Assembly: GCA_020056225.1 (NCBI GenBank)
Contig: JAGVIE010000050.1
Coordinates: forward strand, 1 to 64,000
Length of the DNA: 64,000 nucleotides
Source of the DNA: Bacteroidota bacterium
GTDB lineage: Bacteria > Bacteroidota > Ignavibacteria > UBA10030 > SZUA-254
Reading direction: 5' to 3'
Shown: in pieces, positions 40,550 through 48,907 of the stretch
Numbering within the stretch: position 1 is the first letter of the stretch
Layout of the letters: the number at the start of each line of letters is the position of its first letter
The notes under the pieces: model-generated
The model's database searches: none
Told to the model about the DNA's origin: nothing
What the model saw: only the letters and a program-made list of their open reading frames with translations
Program-made: the position numbers and the translations under genes

Positions 40550-40732
40550 ATGTTTTTTGCGCATTCTGAAAATACGGCAGGGACGAAACATATTCTAAAG
40601 GATCACCTCGAAAGCACTGCGGATATTTGTCGGTTGTTTGTACCATCTGCAAAGTTTGAGCAGTTGTTCTATCTTGCAGGGTTGGTGCATGATGGGGGAA
40701 AATTTCAGGATGGATTTCAAGTTATAGGGTGA
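40550..40732 (+). pseudogene. Relic of a cas3 gene: N-terminal HD domain fragment
   Basis: A 60-residue frame that starts MFFAHSENTAG, continues KDHLESTADICRLF and reaches LAGLVHDGGKFQDGFQ before a stop. These are the opening motifs of a type I-C Cas3 HD nuclease, which normally continues for some 700 residues. The usual HDxGK form is kept as HDGGK. The remaining HD ligands and the helicase are absent, and only 41 bases separate the stop from cas5c, so the rest was deleted. It occupies the position where cas3 stands in standard I-C operons. It differs in sequence from the complete Cas3 at 44438, so it is not a partial duplicate of that gene. Confidence 0.75.
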
Positions 40733-40773: not shown

Positions 40774-41397
40774 ATGAGTCCACAAAATAAATCTTATGAA
40801 GTTCAATTTGAGATTGCGGGAACGGCGGCTATGTTTACCAGACCTGATACTGGGGCAACGCCGGTTTCTTATCCTGCGCCAACATATTCAGCGGCAAAGG
40901 GAATGTTCGAATCCATTGTGCGATTGAAAAGTGCACATATTAGACCGACGAAAGTTGAGATATGTGCGCCGATTCATTATCACCGTTACACAACCAATTA
41001 TGGTGGACCACTAAGAAAAAGTAATCAATTGAGCAAAGGTAGTTCATATCAACTGTTTGCCACTATCCTTGTAGATGTTTGTTATCGTGTTTACGGCGTA
41101 GTGGAAGAAATAGAAAGAGCGCCAATAGATCGCACAACAAACCACTTACATTACCTTCAAGATAAATTTGAAAAACGACTTCGTAACGGTAGATGGTATC
41201 ACGTACCTTGTTTGGGATGGAACGAATTCACTCCATCATATGTCGGACCATTTCGTGAAACAACCAAAGTGGAAGAATCTGTTGAGCAGATTATTCCGTC
41301 AATGCTTTTTTCTGTTTTCAGCAGGCCGGGAGTTTACTCTCCGTCATACAAGCAAGACGTTTGGATAAAGAAAGGAGTTCTTGAATATGTTGAATGA
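40774..41397 (+). CDS. cas5c: Cas5c, type I-C CRISPR RNA-processing and Cascade subunit
   Basis: In type I-C systems Cas5 replaces Cas6: it cuts the pre-crRNA and stays on the 5' handle. The 207-residue product shows MFTRPDTGATPVSYPAPT, SAAKGMFESIV, and VEICAPIHYHR, then a Cas5c-like LQDKFEKRLRNGRWYHVPCLGWNEF block. An AGGAG precedes the ATG. By eye the position that holds Lys in the known Lys-His pair of Cas5c (for instance KH in the Bacillus halodurans enzyme) reads LH here (NHLHYLQDKF), which is doubtful and needs alignment. Its 3' end overlaps the start of cas8c by 11 bases. No cas6 is present, as expected for type I-C. Confidence 0.82.
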   Translation: MSPQNKSYEVQFEIAGTAAMFTRPDTGATPVSYPAPTYSAAKGMFESIVRLKSAHIRPTKVEICAPIHYHRYTTNYGGPLRKSNQLSKGSSYQLFATILVDVCYRVYGVVEEIERAPIDRTTNHLHYLQDKFEKRLRNGRWYHVPCLGWNEFTPSYVGPFRETTKVEESVEQIIPSMLFSVFSRPGVYSPSYKQDVWIKKGVLEYVE

Positions 41398-43522
41398 AGG
41401 ATATGCTCTTCATAAAAGTCTGGAACGATGCGGAGTGCGGCTTATAAATCGACATCCAGACGTAAAAGAACCAGGTAAGAAGGATGGATTAATTGTCGGA
41501 TTAGATAAAAAAGGGAAAATCGTCAGAATAGAATACCGAAAAGCCGAAGACATCTCCAATCTGTGGACGACAAGAGAGGGAATGCAAAATAGCTTTCCGG
41601 TATTAAAACTACAACACCCCTTATGGAAGATCAGCCAAAACGATCCGCTTCGAAAAAAGCTTATCAATCTGAATGCAGATGAAATAGAGAAACGCAAACT
41701 GCTTAACCACCAAACTCATAGATTGAATATCTCATTAACTGAGAAAAATTGGTGGAATAGGCTACAAGAACGGGTCAAAATTTTACATCCATTTTTTGAA
41801 ACAACAAATAAAGATTATATGGCATTGTACGAGTTGACCAATCGTTATCTTCTTGCGAAAAAGGTCAATGATTTTGCTGAAGAATTATTAAATAAGGTGA
41901 GAAAACTTCAAAAAGAGATTCCATATACTCTTTATGAGAATATTTTAATAGGCAATATATATAAAGCAAAGGACAAAGGATATCGTGCGGAGATTCCACT
42001 TGTGCTTGATTTGAGCGACTGGGAAAAATATTCAGTGCGAGTTGCCAGTCCCAAGATGGAGCCCTTTGTAAATGAGTGTTTATTCAAGATGCAAAGCCCT
42101 GATTTAGTTGACGACAATAAGGCAAGTGACAACGTATCGCCAAGTGCATTATCGGGTAGCAAGGTACAGTTAGAAGATGATAAGTTTCCAAATCCTAAAT
42201 TACCAATAATAGGAAACACTTATCTTTTTTCTGTAAACGATCAAACGCCTTGTCAAACTCGATATAAAAAAACCAGCACAGATATTATTTCTATCGGGCG
42301 CCAAGAAGCAAACAAAATTCAAGACTCTCTAAACTGGATTACGAGTAAAGAACGAAAAGGAAAAACATGGTATCCCATACCAGGGTTGAATGAGGGCAAA
42401 AGCGACTTACTTATCACTTATCTTGAGAACAAACCCAATCTTAATGTGAATAAGGCATACTTGTTAGGTGGTATTAGTAAAAATGATTTTAGTGACAGTA
42501 CATATGAAGCAATATCCAGTGTAGCAATCGACGCTTTAAAAGGTGAACAAATTGTGCGAGCAAGCGACCTCATTAGAATCTTTTCTCTTCGTAAAGCCGA
42601 TCCGGGACGTACACAGGTATCTTTGCAGCGAGTTTATACAATTTCTAATCTCGTACAAGCTGATAAGACATGGAGGGAAGCAGCACTAAATGTCCCGAAT
42701 ATTTCTTTGCCTTTCTTCCGCAAAGAAATTGAAAAGACAATTGCCAGACAAGAAAATATTGCTGTGTCAATTTCGCAATTTCTCGCAGATAAAGAATTGA
42801 AAGCAACTTTTCTCTCACCAAGTTGTCCTTTCCCCGCCGATCTTGTTCAACTTACACAAAAGCAATGGATACGATTTGGAGAAGATTCTACTTCGGTATC
42901 TGGCGTTGCACTTGGAGATTTGTATGATATCTTTTTTGCCCACGGAACTATTGAAAGAAGTCTGGCGGAATATTTGTTAAGTATAACACTTCAACGTACA
43001 CAAGCTATACTTATTGGACTTGGACAGGCAGATCATAAAAACGAGATATATACAGTTAAGCCCGAAGCACGATTTACAGTATTAAAGACAATTTCAGCAT
43101 TTGCTATTTACTTATACAAACTCGGAATTAAAAAGGAGAATTATATGAAGGATACATTTTTCTATGTCGGCAGATTTCTGTCGCTGATTGATATATTACA
43201 TTTAGAATACTGTAAGAATGTTCGTGGTGGAAACATACCGCCACAACTTTTAGGAAATGCCCATCTTCAAATCGCGCTGGACAATCCAGTCTCAGCACTT
43301 GATATACTATCGCGGAGAATAAATATATATCAGGCGTGGACAAGAAAAGAGCAAGGAGAACAAGTTAAATTAGCACGATGGTCAGTCGGGCAACTTGGAA
43401 AAATTTCAACCTTACTTGCTGAAAAATCTCTGCCAATTTGCACGACGAATGTTGATAGGGCCCAAATTCTTTTAGGTTATTTAGCCAAATCGGAAGAGAT
43501 CCTTGAAGAAGAAAAAAAATAA
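41387..43522 (+). CDS. cas8c: Cas8c-like large subunit of type I-C Cascade
   Basis: The 711-residue product stands between cas5c and cas7c, where the I-C large subunit (Csd1/Cas8c) belongs, and is somewhat longer than usual. Individual motifs are weak. It is assigned by position, size and the C-terminal region, which reads like the Cas11c part (see the internal start at 43145). ATG 41387 is chosen, with GGAG at 41374-41377 nine bases before it. An in-frame TTG at 41381 is less likely. PAM recognition and R-loop stabilisation are the expected roles. Base composition is low in G+C (20 of 60 in 42481-42540 by hand count). Confidence 0.68.
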   Translation: MLNEGYALHKSLERCGVRLINRHPDVKEPGKKDGLIVGLDKKGKIVRIEYRKAEDISNLWTTREGMQNSFPVLKLQHPLWKISQNDPLRKKLINLNADEIEKRKLLNHQTHRLNISLTEKNWWNRLQERVKILHPFFETTNKDYMALYELTNRYLLAKKVNDFAEELLNKVRKLQKEIPYTLYENILIGNIYKAKDKGYRAEIPLVLDLSDWEKYSVRVASPKMEPFVNECLFKMQSPDLVDDNKASDNVSPSALSGSKVQLEDDKFPNPKLPIIGNTYLFSVNDQTPCQTRYKKTSTDIISIGRQEANKIQDSLNWITSKERKGKTWYPIPGLNEGKSDLLITYLENKPNLNVNKAYLLGGISKNDFSDSTYEAISSVAIDALKGEQIVRASDLIRIFSLRKADPGRTQVSLQRVYTISNLVQADKTWREAALNVPNISLPFFRKEIEKTIARQENIAVSISQFLADKELKATFLSPSCPFPADLVQLTQKQWIRFGEDSTSVSGVALGDLYDIFFAHGTIERSLAEYLLSITLQRTQAILIGLGQADHKNEIYTVKPEARFTVLKTISAFAIYLYKLGIKKENYMKDTFFYVGRFLSLIDILHLEYCKNVRGGNIPPQLLGNAHLQIALDNPVSALDILSRRINIYQAWTRKEQGEQVKLARWSVGQLGKISTLLAEKSLPICTTNVDRAQILLGYLAKSEEILEEEKK
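43145..43522 (+). CDS. cas11c: Cas11c small subunit from an internal start in cas8c
   Basis: Inside cas8c, AAGGAG at 43133-43138 lies six bases before an in-frame ATG at 43145 (residue 587 of Cas8c). Translation from there gives 125 residues, MKDTFFYVGRFLSLIDILHL to the natural stop, a helical protein of the size known for Cas11c. Separate production of the small subunit from inside cas8 is established for several type I-B, I-C and I-D systems. Here the strong binding site in the correct place supports the same. It would line the target-strand belly of Cascade. Whether both products are made is not proved by the sequence. Confidence 0.72.
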   Translation: MKDTFFYVGRFLSLIDILHLEYCKNVRGGNIPPQLLGNAHLQIALDNPVSALDILSRRINIYQAWTRKEQGEQVKLARWSVGQLGKISTLLAEKSLPICTTNVDRAQILLGYLAKSEEILEEEKK

Positions 43523-43562: not shown

Positions 43563-44441
43563 ATGTCAAAGACAATACAAGAAGAAGTTATTAATCGAGC
43601 CACAGGGCTGTTGATTATTGACGTTATAAATTCCAACCCAAACGGTGATCCAGATAAAGAAAGCGATCCTCGCCAAAGATCAGATCAAAAAGGAGAGATT
43701 TCGCCGGTTTCTTTTAAGCGAAAGCTTCGAGATCTCATCGAAGACAAGGATGGACCAGTATGGAAAAAAAATGAAAAGGATGCTTCGTTGAACCAAGATG
43801 AGTTTTTCATTCTTGAAAGCCGGGGACGAGATCGTGGTGAAATTAAGAAACTGCTTGAGAAGAATCCCGATGCATTTAAGAATAAATACTGGGATGCTAG
43901 GATTTTTGGTAACACTTTTCTTGAAGAAGGAGCATCAACAAGTATCAAAACAGGTGTTATTCAGTTTGGACTAGGAATTTCTGTAGCTCCAGTACGAATC
44001 GAGCGCATGACGACGACCAATAAGTCTGGAGTTGAAGAAGGTAAAGACCGTGGTATGGCACCGCTAGGTTATCGAATAGTTGAGCACGGAGTTTATTGCA
44101 TGCCCTTTTTTGTCAACCCTACGGCTGCCATTAAAACCGGATGCACTAAAAAAGATATTGATCTTCTCTTAAGAGTCATTCCACATACCTACAAACACAC
44201 AGCATCATACATTAGAAGCAATGTGGATATAATTCATGCTTGGTATATTGAACATAAGTCTCCGCTGGGTTCTTGTTCCGACTTTGATTTGATTGCAGCG
44301 TTGACTCCAAAGAAGAATAATAAGCCCGAAGAACCCTCAACATCAAGAGCCGATTATACTCCAATACCGACAGAACAGAATGTACCGGAAGAACTTCGAA
44401 AGAAAGTACTTCCGATTAGAGATTTAATGAAAGAAATATGA
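43563..44441 (+). CDS. cas7c: Cas7c backbone subunit of type I-C Cascade
   Basis: A 292-residue RAMP-type protein that coats the crRNA spacer. Its opening GLLIIDVINSNPNGDPDKES is the signature of the Csd2/Csh2 Cas7 family. The segment DARIFGNTFLEEGAS and then IQFGLGISVAPVRIERMTTT and the later MAPLGYRIVEHGVYCMPFFV are also typical. TTGGAG 8-10 bases before the ATG is a good binding site. Its stop overlaps the cas3 start as ATGA at 44438-44441. The C-terminal region is charged and less conserved. Confidence 0.88.
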   Translation: MSKTIQEEVINRATGLLIIDVINSNPNGDPDKESDPRQRSDQKGEISPVSFKRKLRDLIEDKDGPVWKKNEKDASLNQDEFFILESRGRDRGEIKKLLEKNPDAFKNKYWDARIFGNTFLEEGASTSIKTGVIQFGLGISVAPVRIERMTTTNKSGVEEGKDRGMAPLGYRIVEHGVYCMPFFVNPTAAIKTGCTKKDIDLLLRVIPHTYKHTASYIRSNVDIIHAWYIEHKSPLGSCSDFDLIAALTPKKNNKPEEPSTSRADYTPIPTEQNVPEELRKKVLPIRDLMKEI

Positions 44442-46684
44442 TGGCTGTGTTGCTTGCGCATAGTGCGGGCAAGAATCCACCTGTACCGCCTCAGCCTTAC
44501 TTGACACATGTTTCAAATGTATTGCGTCGGGTAATGGAGAATACCGAGCGTCTTTCTCCGTACTACGGAGGCGATCTGAATTACTTCCGTGAAGCTGTAA
44601 GGGCGTCAGCCATCTTTCACGACTTGGGAAAGTTGGATGATGAGAATCAAAAAATTCTTTTACGTGGCGGTGGAAGAGGTTTGCCCGTGAATCATGTTGA
44701 TGCTGGAACTGCAAACTTGCTTGCGAACGATTTGGCGGAATCAGCTCTCATTGCTTATGCACATCATATTGGGTTACAGTCGATTCCTGAAGAGCGAGCA
44801 AAGGAAGAATTGTTTCTACGCGATCCGAATTTGGTTACTCGGACAGAACAGTATCTTGCGGATTATCTTTCAAAGCATATTAATTCGGGGTCAGGAAAGT
44901 TAGAAAAAACAGCAGATGGTGTTTCTGATTGGACCGGATTAACACGACGAATAGCTCTCTCATGTTTAGTAGACGCGGATCATGGAGATACAGCACACAA
45001 TTACCAACAAGAATTCCCCGTATCACATCCATCTCCAAGATGGAAAGAGCGACTTGAAAAACTTGATGAATATGTAAAAGGGCTGATAAAAGAATCGAAT
45101 CCTAATGAAGAAAGGAATCGGCTTCGTCAACAAATATATCAATCTTGTCGTGATGCAGATACAACTCCTTCTTTTTATGCATGCGATAGTCCAGTTGGAA
45201 CAGGTAAAACAACGGCGGTCATGGCTCATCTTTTAAGAATGGCGATAGATAAAAACCTTCGTCATATTATTGTTGTGTTGCCATACACAAACATCATCAA
45301 ACAATCTGTTGAGGTTTATCGAAAAGCACTCGTTTTGCCAGATGAGAACGCTGATGAAATAGTTGCAGAACATCATCATCAAGCAGATTTTGATGATCTC
45401 AATACCCGTCAATTAGCAACGCTATGGAAATCGCCGATTATTGTAACAACAGCAGTTCAATTCTTTGAGACCATAGCAAGTAATCATCCGTCAAAACTCA
45501 GGAAACTTCACGAACTTCCCGGAAGCGGTGTCTTTATAGATGAAACACACGCGGCGATACCGTTTCATTTATGGCCTCAAACGTGGAAGTGGTTGAAAGA
45601 GTTCTCAGAGAAATGGGATTGTTATTTTGTATTTGCGTCCGGCTCGCTTTCGAGATTTTGGGAATTGAAAGATATGATTGAAGAGCCAGAAATAATTCCA
45701 GATTTGGTGTCGAAGCAATTACGAGAAGAGGCATTACGCCAGGAAAGAAAACGAATTATACCTGTCCGACATCCATCTGTATTAAACGATACAGAATTAA
45801 TTAACCTCGTTCTTAGCAAGCCAGGTCCCCGATTGGTTATTATGAACACAGTTCAATCAGCCGCTGTGCTTGCGGATAGATTAGCAAAGAAGATTAATGG
45901 AAAAGAAGAATATACAATAGATGTACATACTTCAAAGGTATTGCATTTGTCTACTGCTCTATCTCCAATTGATAGAGAGGTTATCGTAAAAAAAATCGAA
46001 GAACGGCTTGCTTTACCAATTGACAATTCAAGAAGAGATTTCACACTTGTTGCGACAAGTTGTGTTGAGGCGGGAGTAGATTTTTCTTTTCGTTCGGCAT
46101 TTCGTGAACGTGCCGGGACAGCAAATCTTATTCAGATAGGAGGTCGGGTTCGTAGAAATAATGAAGACTTTGAACCGACACTAATAGACTTTAGGATCGA
46201 AGCACCTCTTTTTAATCGTCATCCTGCTTTTACTTTGTCGAGTCAAATATTGGAAAAATTGTTTAACGAAAACAAGGTTGAATCAGACCCACCTGCTGAC
46301 CTCGTTACAGAAGCATTGCGGAGAGAATTGATGTCAGATACCAGTGAAAGACATAAAAGATTGCAAAAGATGGAAAGAGAAATGGATTATCCAGAGGTAG
46401 CAAAATTATATCAAGTGATTTCGAGTAACACTATTCTTGTTTTAGTAAATCAACAAATAATAGAGAATCTTAAGAAGAGAGAAAAAGTATATCCAAAAGA
46501 AATAAATCGCAACAGCGTACAAATTTGGATGAATAAAATTGGGAAGACTTGTGCTTATCCACTGGATGCATTTCCCGGTCTATATGGATTAGACAAAGAT
46601 AATTATGATAAAACATTTTTGGGGTATATGAAGGGAATGTTGCAACAATTAAAACAAGATTCTGAGGGTGGTGGAGTGATCTAA
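44438..46684 (+). CDS. cas3: Cas3 HD nuclease-helicase, complete
   Basis: A 748-residue Cas3 that degrades target DNA after Cascade binding. The N-terminal HD domain has THVSNVL (first His), FHDLGK (residues 60-65), NHVDAGT and AYAHHIGL. The SF2 helicase has Walker A GTGKTTAV, DETH Walker B, the FASGS motif III and QIGGRVRR as motif VI, preceded by SCVEAGVDF. All essential motifs are intact. It sits between cas7c and cas4, not at the head of the operon as in typical I-C loci. Its N-terminus is unlike the relic at 40550. Two ATGs stand at the start (44438 and 44441). Confidence 0.9.
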   Translation: MMAVLLAHSAGKNPPVPPQPYLTHVSNVLRRVMENTERLSPYYGGDLNYFREAVRASAIFHDLGKLDDENQKILLRGGGRGLPVNHVDAGTANLLANDLAESALIAYAHHIGLQSIPEERAKEELFLRDPNLVTRTEQYLADYLSKHINSGSGKLEKTADGVSDWTGLTRRIALSCLVDADHGDTAHNYQQEFPVSHPSPRWKERLEKLDEYVKGLIKESNPNEERNRLRQQIYQSCRDADTTPSFYACDSPVGTGKTTAVMAHLLRMAIDKNLRHIIVVLPYTNIIKQSVEVYRKALVLPDENADEIVAEHHHQADFDDLNTRQLATLWKSPIIVTTAVQFFETIASNHPSKLRKLHELPGSGVFIDETHAAIPFHLWPQTWKWLKEFSEKWDCYFVFASGSLSRFWELKDMIEEPEIIPDLVSKQLREEALRQERKRIIPVRHPSVLNDTELINLVLSKPGPRLVIMNTVQSAAVLADRLAKKINGKEEYTIDVHTSKVLHLSTALSPIDREVIVKKIEERLALPIDNSRRDFTLVATSCVEAGVDFSFRSAFRERAGTANLIQIGGRVRRNNEDFEPTLIDFRIEAPLFNRHPAFTLSSQILEKLFNENKVESDPPADLVTEALRRELMSDTSERHKRLQKMEREMDYPEVAKLYQVISSNTILVLVNQQIIENLKKREKVYPKEINRNSVQIWMNKIGKTCAYPLDAFPGLYGLDKDNYDKTFLGYMKGMLQQLKQDSEGGGVI

Positions 46685-46687
46685 TAT

Positions 46688-47314
46688 ATGTACTCCGAAG
46701 ACGACTTCATACAACTCAGCGCTCTGCAACATTACGTATTTTGCCCGCGGCAATGTGGGTTGATACATGTGGAAGATGTATGGGCGGATAACGTCTTTAC
46801 CGTGCGCGGAGAAATCCTGCACGAAAAGGTGGATACCGATACGTACGAAACGCGAGGCACGCTGAAAACGGTGCGTGGGTTGAGAATCCATTCAACACGA
46901 CTTGGCATTGTTGGTAGGTGCGATGTTGTAGAATTTCGAAAAGGTAAGAGCGAACAGGAAGAAGTAATGCCTGTGGAGTTTAAGTCTGGCGAACCCAAAG
47001 AAGATGTGAGTGATAAGGTGCAGTTATGCGCGCAAGCATTATGCTTAGAAGAAATGATGAACACGCAGGTGAAGCGCGGAGCGTTCTTCTATGGTAAAAT
47101 CCGACGTCGTGTTCAGGTTGAGCTTGATGACGAACTAAGAAAGCAAACAGAAGAGATCATTGCTGCCGTGCATGAGATTGTCTCGCAAAAGAAAGTGCCT
47201 GCGGCTCGTTACAATGAGAAATGCAGAAATTGTTCTCTCGAAGAAACGTGCATGCCAAAGGCAATGAATGAAAGAAAACTTCATAAATATATTGAAACCT
47301 TGTATCAGCCATGA
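46688..47314 (+). CDS. cas4: Cas4 nuclease of spacer acquisition
   Basis: A 208-residue RecB-type nuclease with the iron-sulfur motif of Cas4: one cysteine group in HYVFCPRQCGLI near residue 20 and three cysteines in CRNCSLEETC near the end. The PD-(D/E)XK core reads GRCDVVEF, then MPVEFKSGEP with Glu and Lys. It trims prespacers and helps choose PAM orientation for Cas1-Cas2. It starts four bases after cas3. G+C rises sharply from here (34 of 60 in 46801-46860, against 19 of 60 in 46381-46440 of cas3), so the adaptation genes probably have a different history. Confidence 0.9.
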   Translation: MYSEDDFIQLSALQHYVFCPRQCGLIHVEDVWADNVFTVRGEILHEKVDTDTYETRGTLKTVRGLRIHSTRLGIVGRCDVVEFRKGKSEQEEVMPVEFKSGEPKEDVSDKVQLCAQALCLEEMMNTQVKRGAFFYGKIRRRVQVELDDELRKQTEEIIAAVHEIVSQKKVPAARYNEKCRNCSLEETCMPKAMNERKLHKYIETLYQP

Positions 47315-48339
47315 AAAAACATCTCAACACACTCTATATTACTTCTGACGATGCCTATGTCCACAAAGAACGGGAAACATTTGTTGTGGAGGTGAACAAC
47401 GAAAAAGTCTTTCAAGCTCCTGTTCACTCGATTGAGAATATTGTCTGTTTCGGTTTCAAGGCGCTGAGTCCGCAACTGATGGCATTTTGTGCGGAGAATA
47501 ATGTTGGGATTAGCTATCTTTCGGAGAACGGAAAGTTTCTTGCGCGCGTATATGGCGCACAAAAAGGAAATGTTCTTCTGCGGAAAGCACAGTATGCTAT
47601 TTCTGACAACGAAATGGAATCCCTTTCAATTGCAAGGCCAATAGTTGCGGCGAAGGTGGCTAACTATCGCAGTTTGCTGCTTCGCCATCAGCGTAATCAT
47701 CCGAATGAATGTCCTGATTCAGTTGGATTAACGGCGGAGACGATGGGATGCCGACTGATGGAAATTCAAAGATCGGAATCATTGGATGGACTCCGCGGTT
47801 ACGAGGGTGAATGTGCGGCGTTGTATTTCGGAGTGTTGTCGGCACTTATCACGGTTCAACGGGAAGATTTCATATTTACTGGTCGAACGAAACGACCGCC
47901 TCTTGATCCTGCGAATGCTCTTCTTTCGTTCTTGTATGCAATTTTGGCAAACGATGTGAGGTCGGCACTTGAGACAACCGGACTTGATCCGCAGGTAGGT
48001 TTCTTGCATCAACTAAGATCGGGAAGACCGAGTTTAGCGCTCGATCTTATGGAAGAATTCCGGGCATATCTTGGCGACAGGATAATGTTGAATCTCATTA
48101 ATCTAAAACAAGTGACAAAGGATGATTTCGAAATTCGTGAATCTGGGGAAGTCCGCATGTCTGACGATGCGAGAAAGACAGTGATAACCGCATATCAGAA
48201 GCGCAAACAGGAAGAGATCACACATCCGTTTTTAGACGAAAAGATGACAATTGGTTTACTGCCACACATTCAAGCACAACTTCTCGCAAGATACATACGA
48301 GGAGATATTAAAGAATATCCACCATTTTATCTTAAGTGA
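47311..48339 (+). CDS. cas1: Cas1 integrase of type I-C
   Basis: A 342-residue Cas1 that inserts spacers into the array. The fold is recognisable from the N-terminal LYITSDDAYVHKE strand, GLRGYEGECAALYFGVL with the metal-binding Glu, LDPANALLSFLYAIL (with the Asn-Ala-Leu-Leu-Ser-Phe block), GLDPQVGFLHQLRSGRPSLALDL with His, and DLMEEFRAYLGDR with the third acidic ligand. Its ATG overlaps the Cas4 stop (ATGA). The sequence is the standard I-C type Cas1 and is better conserved than the effector proteins upstream. Confidence 0.93.
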   Translation: MKKHLNTLYITSDDAYVHKERETFVVEVNNEKVFQAPVHSIENIVCFGFKALSPQLMAFCAENNVGISYLSENGKFLARVYGAQKGNVLLRKAQYAISDNEMESLSIARPIVAAKVANYRSLLLRHQRNHPNECPDSVGLTAETMGCRLMEIQRSESLDGLRGYEGECAALYFGVLSALITVQREDFIFTGRTKRPPLDPANALLSFLYAILANDVRSALETTGLDPQVGFLHQLRSGRPSLALDLMEEFRAYLGDRIMLNLINLKQVTKDDFEIRESGEVRMSDDARKTVITAYQKRKQEEITHPFLDEKMTIGLLPHIQAQLLARYIRGDIKEYPPFYLK

Positions 48340-48346
48340 AATCGCT

Positions 48347-48637
48347 ATGATGGTTCTAGTAAGTTATGATATGTCAACAAAGACAGCAGGCGGGGTTCGT
48401 CGGCTTAGAAAAATCTCGGAGATGTGTTTGGATTATGGATTGCGTGTACAAAATTCGGTGTTTGAATGCAATGTTGATCCGGCGCAGTGGGAAATTTTAA
48501 AGGATAGATTGTTATCTTTGTATAATGCGGAAGAAGATAGTTTGAGATTTTATTATCTTGGATCGAACTGGAGACGGAGAGTAGAACACAATGGCAAAGG
48601 TGTGATAGATGATATTGAGGAACCAATAATTGTATAG
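48347..48637 (+). CDS. cas2: Cas2
   Basis: A 96-residue Cas2, the dimeric partner of Cas1. It opens MMVLVSYDMSTKTAGGVRRL with the usual beta strand and Asp, continues GLRVQNSVFECNVDP, and ends in IIV. ATG 48347 is chosen, eight bases after the Cas1 stop. A second ATG follows at 48350. A longer in-frame extension into cas1 (from 48251) is not real because it overlaps Cas1 and lacks Cas2 sequence. The CRISPR leader follows directly. Confidence 0.93.
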   Translation: MMVLVSYDMSTKTAGGVRRLRKISEMCLDYGLRVQNSVFECNVDPAQWEILKDRLLSLYNAEEDSLRFYYLGSNWRRRVEHNGKGVIDDIEEPIIV

Positions 48638-48807: not shown

Positions 48808-48907
48808 GTCGCGCTCCGTACGAGCGCGTGGATTGAAACCAGATCAGGCGAAATCTTGAAAAGAAGAAAAATCTTGTCGCGCTCCGTACGAGCGCGTGGA
48901 TTGAAAC
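48808..48907 (+). CRISPR. Minimal CRISPR array, two repeats and one spacer (type I-C repeat)
   Basis: Two identical 32-base repeats are at 48808-48839 and 48876-48907 with a 36-base spacer at 48840-48875. The repeat holds a seven-pair stem (CGCGCTC and GAGCGCG, loop CGTAC) and ends TGGATTGAAAC, the 11-base 5' handle expected after Cas5c cleavage. It is the type I-C repeat form, in the orientation expected from the cas genes and leader. Beyond 48907 there is no further repeat. The GTGTGGATTCGAT around 48938 recalls the repeat end but is out of register. The array is real but very short, or shortened by deletion or assembly. Confidence 0.93.

What the first reader, a model, noticed from the sequence alone, without database searches (positions are those of the whole stretch)
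43133..43522. Internal ribosome binding site and start for Cas11c inside cas8c
AAGGAG, six bases and an in-frame ATG at 43145 would give a 125-residue C-terminal product, the expected Cas11c size. Internal translation of the small subunit is established for several type I systems. Here the signal is unusually clean for a divergent cas8c.
Basis: partly seen in the sequence, partly recalled or inferred. Interest (0 to 1): 0.55.

Follow-up and report, generated by a model that had tools for sequence, protein, structure and literature searches.

The report
Gene-within-a-gene start inside cas8c
This CRISPR gene carries a second, conserved start signal near its end that very probably makes a separate small subunit of the DNA-targeting complex, the same trick already known from related type I-C systems.

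Summary
In this one sequence it is suggestive only: given the peptide, 11% of synonymous shuffles recreate the hexamer, although it is the only such site among 740 internal in-frame start codons of the window. Comparison settles it. In 11 divergent Cas8c genes (family PDLC01562) the start codon is ATG in 11 of 11 and AAGGAG lies exactly 6 nt upstream in 10 of 11; the eleventh has AAGGAT. It is the strongest synonymous-conservation peak of the gene. In 21 canonical Csd1/Cas8c genes of the same class AAGGAG precedes the homologous start in 21 of 21, with GTG replacing ATG in two and the hexamer in a shifted reading frame in four: selection acts on the RNA signal, not the peptide. The downstream domain is homologous to solved Cas11c proteins through the canonical family; a direct match failed and the predicted models are unusable. 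Internal translation of Cas11c is published. A well-supported new member of a known kind.

The parts
43133..43138 (+). Internal Shine-Dalgarno hexamer AAGGAG (codons for Lys-Glu in Cas8c)
   Evidence: Read; synonymous conservation peak; present in 10 of 11 divergent and 21 of 21 canonical genes
43139..43144 (+). 6-nt spacer AATTAT between the hexamer and the start codon
   Evidence: spacing of 6 nt in 22 of 32 genes
43145..43522 (+). [quoted passage not shown]
   Evidence: expression itself not shown
41387..43522 (+). cas8c, 711 aa from ATG 41387 (alternative TTG at 41381), divergent family PDLC01562; its own AAGGAG lies at 41372-41377 inside cas5c
   Evidence: PADLOC PDLC01562, E 1.2e-149; no NCBIfam match
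40774..41397 (+). cas5c
   Evidence: PADLOC Cas5c, E 1.6e-21
43563..44441 (+). cas7 (I-B/I-C type)
   Evidence: E 6.8e-52
44438..46684 (+). cas3 (HD plus helicase), placed after cas7 in this clade
   Evidence: Cas3c, E 4.9e-97; order in relatives
46688..47314 (+). cas4
47311..48339 (+). cas1 (type I-C, over the NCBIfam cut-off)
   Evidence: TIGR03640, E 2.5e-144
48347..48637 (+). cas2
48808..48907 (+). CRISPR array of two identical 32-nt repeats and one 36-nt spacer
   Evidence: no other copy of the repeat in the genome

Best explanation
One mRNA region makes two proteins. Ribosomes that start at the cas8c start make full-length Cas8c (711 aa), the large, PAM-reading subunit of a type I-C Cascade. 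[quoted passage not shown] By analogy with the solved type I-C complexes, copies of this small subunit stack on the Cas8c C-terminal domain along the Cas7 backbone and hold the displaced DNA strand while the guide RNA pairs with its target, before Cas3 is recruited. Shown here: the site, its conservation at the RNA level in two Cas8c families, and homology of the domain to canonical Cas11c. Inferred: that the site is used in this organism, the 2:1 stoichiometry and the role in strand holding.
For: Exact site. ATG in 11 of 11 divergent genes, AAGGAG at exactly 6 nt in 10 of 11, with pairwise protein identity of 23-68%, median 32%. Strongest synonymous-conservation window of the divergent gene: Lys-Glu, 100 of 100 comparable codon pairs identical against 58.5 expected; next best is the start region of cas8c itself. 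In 21 canonical genes of the same class AAGGAG precedes the homologous start in 21 of 21, at 6 nt (12), 7 (1), 8 (1), 9 (5) or 11 nt (2); two use GTG, turning the residue to Val while keeping a start codon; in four the hexamer sits in a different codon phase and encodes Lys-Gly-Gly, Glu-Arg-Ser or Lys-Gly-Asp instead of Lys-Glu. Product sizes 118-158 aa. The divergent C-terminal domain aligns to the canonical one by HHalign with probability 96.4%, E 1.2e-9; the canonical profile matches solved Cas11 chains 8g9s_H (E 1.5e-40) and 7kha_K (E 9.1e-38) from their second residue on, and D. vulgaris Cas8c from residue 490, agreeing with the published Cas11c boundary at 489-612 (PMC7684278, passages).
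Against: No expression data. Given the peptide, the hexamer in this single gene is not improbable (11%). The anti-SD of this genome could not be read, and only 15 of 36 long ORFs in the window show a SD-like 4-mer near an early start (ORF set and starts are rough). A direct profile search of the divergent domain against solved structures found no Cas11. AlphaFold models from two sequences were unusable (mean pLDDT 45.5 and 32.4). L006 has AAGGAT, not AAGGAG.
Confidence: 0.93

Rival explanations
1. The Lys-Glu-x-x-Met motif is conserved only because the Cas8c protein needs it, and AAG GAG is a codon coincidence; no second protein is made.
For: The Met and Lys are invariant in the six-sequence divergent alignment, and in the window gene alone the hexamer arises in 11% of synonymous shuffles.
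Against: In the 22 genes, divergent and canonical, that encode Lys-Glu four and three residues before the start, the codons are always AAG GAG (log10 product of codon probabilities -25.7, independence assumed); four canonical genes keep AAGGAG in another codon phase with other amino acids, and two change Met to Val but keep a start codon, GTG.
Confidence: 0.03
2. The hexamer is a ribosome-pausing signal inside cas8c that helps Cas8c folding, not an initiation site.
For: SD-like hexamers can slow ribosomes (recalled, from no call); the site lies just before a domain boundary.
Against: A start codon follows at 6-11 nt in 31 of 31 genes with the hexamer, two of them GTG; pausing needs no start codon. 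Solved type I-C complexes contain the free domain as separate chains (PMC7684278, passages).
Confidence: 0.02
3. The small protein is released by proteolysis of Cas8c rather than made by internal translation.
For: The product would be nearly identical; fragmentation was once proposed for an archaeal Cas8b (cited in PMC11899642, passage).
Against: Does not explain the conserved SD and start codon.
Confidence: 0.02

Closest known systems
Desulfovibrio vulgaris type I-C Cas8c/Cas11c (7KHA and related entries; PMC7684278)
   Same: Internal in-frame start in the last fifth of cas8c makes a ~124-aa helical small subunit identical to the Cas8c C-terminus; boundary at the same place in the alignment.
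   Different: D. vulgaris Cas8c (612 aa) is found by the canonical profile; the window protein is 711 aa, belongs to PDLC01562, and does not match TIGR01863 or any solved Cas8c by sequence.
Neisseria lactamica type I-C Cascade Cas8/Cas11 (8G9S and related entries; organism name recalled)
   Same: Separate Cas11 chain of 124 aa corresponding to the C-terminus of a 582-aa Cas8.
   Different: Named Csd1 family in the entries; no direct match from the divergent profile.
Internal Cas11 of type I-B and I-D (cas8b, cas10d), e.g. Haloferax Cas11b (PMC11899642)
   Same: Same gene-within-gene principle for the small subunit (passages).
   Different: Different large subunits; the Haloferax site has only a potential SD, GGATG (passage).

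Membership tests
Cas11c (internally translated type I-C small subunit) | In-frame internal start with a ribosome binding site in the 3' part of cas8c | tested here: met
Cas11c (internally translated type I-C small subunit) | Site conserved at the nucleotide level in related cas8c genes | tested here: met
   11 of 11 divergent (10 AAGGAG, 1 AAGGAT) and 21 of 21 canonical genes
Cas11c (internally translated type I-C small subunit) | Product of about 120-140 aa covering the whole C-terminal domain | tested here: met
   125 aa; range 118-158 in the genes compared
Cas11c (internally translated type I-C small subunit) | Homology to the canonical Cas11c domain, starting at the same residue | tested here: met
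   HHalign probability 96.4%, E 1.2e-9, colinear from residue 3 to 116
Cas11c (internally translated type I-C small subunit) | Direct sequence match to a solved Cas11c (supporting, not defining for a divergent member) | tested here: not met
   No Cas11 among matches of the single sequence or of the divergent profile; only through the canonical family
Cas11c (internally translated type I-C small subunit) | Helical-bundle fold | tested here: inconclusive
   Model is all-helical (five helices) but mean pLDDT 45.5; no fold search was run on it
Cas11c (internally translated type I-C small subunit) | Made as a separate protein and present in the Cascade complex | not testable with these tools
   Needs proteomics or purification
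Type I-C CRISPR-Cas | cas5c, cas7, cas8c, cas3 with cas4-cas1-cas2 | tested here: met
   PADLOC and NCBIfam; Cas1c over the curated cut-off, type-specific Cas5, Cas7 and Cas3 models below theirs, Cas8c matches PADLOC only
Type I-C CRISPR-Cas | Canonical gene order with cas3 before cas5 (typical, not strictly defining) | tested here: not met
   cas3 follows cas7 here and in 9 of 9 divergent loci where the place is visible; canonical order in 4 of 4 canonical loci fetched
Canonical Csd1/Cas8c (TIGR01863) | Match to the NCBIfam model | tested here: not met
   No match; own genome has none at E 1e-20

The most novel reading that the evidence does not exclude
The internal Cas11c start is older than the split between canonical Csd1 and the PDLC01562 Cas8c family and has been held as an RNA signal ever since, drifting in reading frame and spacing but never lost in the 32 genes examined, so that making the small subunit from inside cas8c is an ancestral and obligatory feature of type I-C, even in a clade with rearranged gene order.
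Probability: 0.65. Interest if true: 0.42.

Novelty: new member of a known kind. Interest (0 to 1): 0.3.

Why it matters
Anyone who clones or annotates this divergent type I-C system must keep the internal start (codon optimisation would destroy it) or supply Cas11c separately. The set of 32 genes also gives a clean example of a nucleotide signal kept under a changing peptide, useful for finding other genes within genes.

Tried and rejected
Direct PDB searches with the window proteins and with the divergent profile found no Cas11; the weak hit to RPB10 homologues (E 0.0038) is taken as chance because it vanishes with the profile.

Own anti-SD: the 16S match ends at model position 1387 at a contig end, so a generic anti-SD was assumed for energies.

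A script of mine listed candidate starts in some canonical loci out of frame, because its scan began at a position that was not a multiple of three; its 'start' lines are wrong and were replaced. The notebook entry repeats the mistaken impression that five loci lack an SD. My note says Cas1 is 77-83% identical to canonical neighbours; the numbers are 73-83%.

Viral contigs held no relative, plasmids none, genome contigs one.

The lone CRISPR spacer (48840-48875) has no match in the phage collection.

Rows dropped before counts: L001, L003 (copies of the window) and L009 (same gene as L005) as duplicates; L034 (N-terminal fragment only). L004 breaks off 8 codons after the start and is counted for the site but not for product length. 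The stops that one search reports inside L013 and inside L031 did not interrupt the frames used (open frames of 709 and 618 aa).

Literature: McBride et al. 2020 (10.1016/j.molcel.2020.11.003) and Tan et al. 2022 (PMC8964063) are not held, so their conservation analyses are unseen.

Full report
What is there. The stretch reads exactly as described: AAGGAG at 43133-43138, six bases, ATG at 43145 in frame with the ORF that ends at 43522, giving 125 residues. The ORF is the large-subunit gene of a type I-C operon: cas5c 40774-41397, cas8c 41387-43522, cas7 43563-44441, cas3 44438-46684, cas4 46688-47314, cas1 47311-48339, cas2 48347-48637, then two CRISPR repeats with one spacer.

Is it more than chance in this gene? 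Moderately. Holding the peptide fixed and shuffling synonymous codons within the gene, AAGGAG at 4-10 nt arises in 11.35% of 4000 shuffles. In the window as a whole it is the only one of 740 internal in-frame start codons in 36 long ORFs with that hexamer at that distance, 6 of 292 internal ATGs pair as strongly with a generic anti-SD, and only 2.7% lie in RNA as weakly folded. Its predicted pairing energy (-8.7) is about that of the cas8c start itself (-8.2; also AAGGAG, nine bases before ATG 41387) and stronger than cas7 (-6.4) and cas5 (-7.3).

Relatives. PDLC01562 is rare: 2 of 395 genomes drawn from the phylum, 2 of 98 of the order, 5 of 391 of the class (counts include the window's genome), and 5 of 296 of the phylum of a Spirochaetaceae genome, itself included. 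With the locus from genome contigs (the same Spirochaetaceae genome) and one phage-collection record this gives 11 distinct genes, 23-68% identical to each other (median 32%). The start codon is ATG in 11 of 11; AAGGAG lies exactly 6 nt upstream in 10 of 11, and the eleventh (L006) has AAGGAT.

Synonymous constraint. Among all two-codon windows of the divergent alignment the Lys-Glu pair scores highest (100 identical codon pairs of 100 comparable, 58.5 expected, z 8.5); the second is the beginning of cas8c, which overlaps the end of cas5 (z 7.8). Over the whole alignment synonymous identity is only 1.10 times the codon-usage expectation, so synonymous sites elsewhere are near saturation. The z values treat sequence pairs as independent and are inflated; the rank is the point. 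In 12 canonical genes with the Lys-Glu motif the same pair is the best two-codon window outside the gene start (z 10.0); with five-codon windows it is nearly tied by another internal stretch (10.6 against 10.5).

The canonical family. 22 Csd1 (TIGR01863) matches came from 21 of 245 genomes of the same class; one is an N-terminal fragment. In the other 21, AAGGAG precedes the homologous start in 21 of 21: 6 nt in 12, 7 in 1, 8 in 1, 9 in 5, 11 in 2. Two genes have GTG: the full-length protein has Val there, yet a start codon is kept. In four genes the hexamer sits in another codon phase and encodes other residues (Lys-Gly-Gly twice, Glu-Arg-Ser, Lys-Gly-Asp). A peptide constraint cannot explain that; a ribosome binding site can.

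Is the product Cas11c? The divergent domain aligns with the canonical one from just after the start Met to near the end: HHalign probability 96.4%, E 1.2e-9 (96.7%). The canonical profile finds the solved Cas11 chains of type I-C complexes (8g9s_H, E 1.5e-40; 7kha_K, E 9.1e-38), whose N-termini coincide with the internal start, and residue 490 onward of D. vulgaris Cas8c. PMC7684278 (passages) gives Cas8c residues 489-612 as the small subunit, two copies per complex, made from an internal ribosome-binding site, lying where the non-target strand runs. Against: the divergent profile alone does not find these chains, and predicted structures were of too low confidence to use, although the model of the domain is all-helical.

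Mechanism. The best reading is dual translation of one cistron: Cas8c from 41387 and Cas11c from 43145. The site and its RNA-level conservation are shown; use of the site, copy number and role in holding the displaced strand are inferred from homologues.

Surroundings. In this clade cas3 follows cas7 (9 of 9 loci where the place is visible), whereas four canonical loci fetched from the same class have cas3 before cas5. Just upstream of cas5 the window has a 60-aa ORF that is the N-terminus of a Cas3 HD domain (PADLOC E 1.3e-10), cut soon after the HD motif. It resembles canonical Cas3 (best E 4.3e-7) more than Cas3 of its own clade (best E 0.14). G294 has a 65-aa counterpart, 75% identical to a canonical Cas3 of the same class (E 1.8e-33), while its best match to Cas3 of the divergent clade is 32% (E 4e-4). 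Together with Cas1 at 73-83% but Cas7 at only 24-29% identity between the window and the four canonical loci, this looks like the scar of an exchange in which the divergent effector genes replaced the canonical ones beside a retained adaptation module; that is inference.

Novelty. Internal translation of the small subunit is published for types I-B, I-C and I-D (PMC7684278, PMC11899642, passages). In the searches I saw no listing that treats this Cas8c family, and the passages read of the 2025 classification (PMC12669027) mention I-C only once, for transposons; the key paper (McBride 2020) is not held, so I cannot say whether this family is in its survey. I file it as a new member of a known kind.

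Noticed in passing
window 40550-40732 (+); also L040 upstream of cas5: A 60-aa stub of a canonical-type Cas3 HD N-terminus directly upstream of cas5, with a 65-aa counterpart in G294 (L040) that is 75% identical to a canonical Cas3 of the same class; L044 and L045 have a 12-residue candidate (weak, E 0.02). Likely scar of an effector-module swap into a canonical I-C locus.
   Followed up: partly
window 44438-46684; L005/L046, L006, L040-L045: Gene order cas5-cas8-cas7-cas3, then cas4-cas1-cas2 where present, in 9 of 9 visible divergent loci, against cas3 first in 4 of 4 canonical loci of the class.
   Followed up: yes
window 48808-48907: The array has only two repeats and one spacer, and the repeat occurs nowhere else in this 3.5-Mb assembly; the system may be little used, or the array lost or unassembled.
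   Followed up: partly
L006 (MT837094.1, phage collection, human gut): A contig deposited as a phage carries cas5-cas8-cas7-cas3 of this clade with no cas4, cas1 or cas2 hit in the 8.9 kb held, next to a TnpV gene and the N-terminal part of a phage-type integrase: an adaptation-less I-C cassette on a likely mobile element.
   Followed up: partly
window 41372-41397: The start of cas8c lies inside the end of cas5c and has the same AAGGAG hexamer, at nine bases; this region is the second synonymous-conservation peak of the gene.
   Followed up: partly
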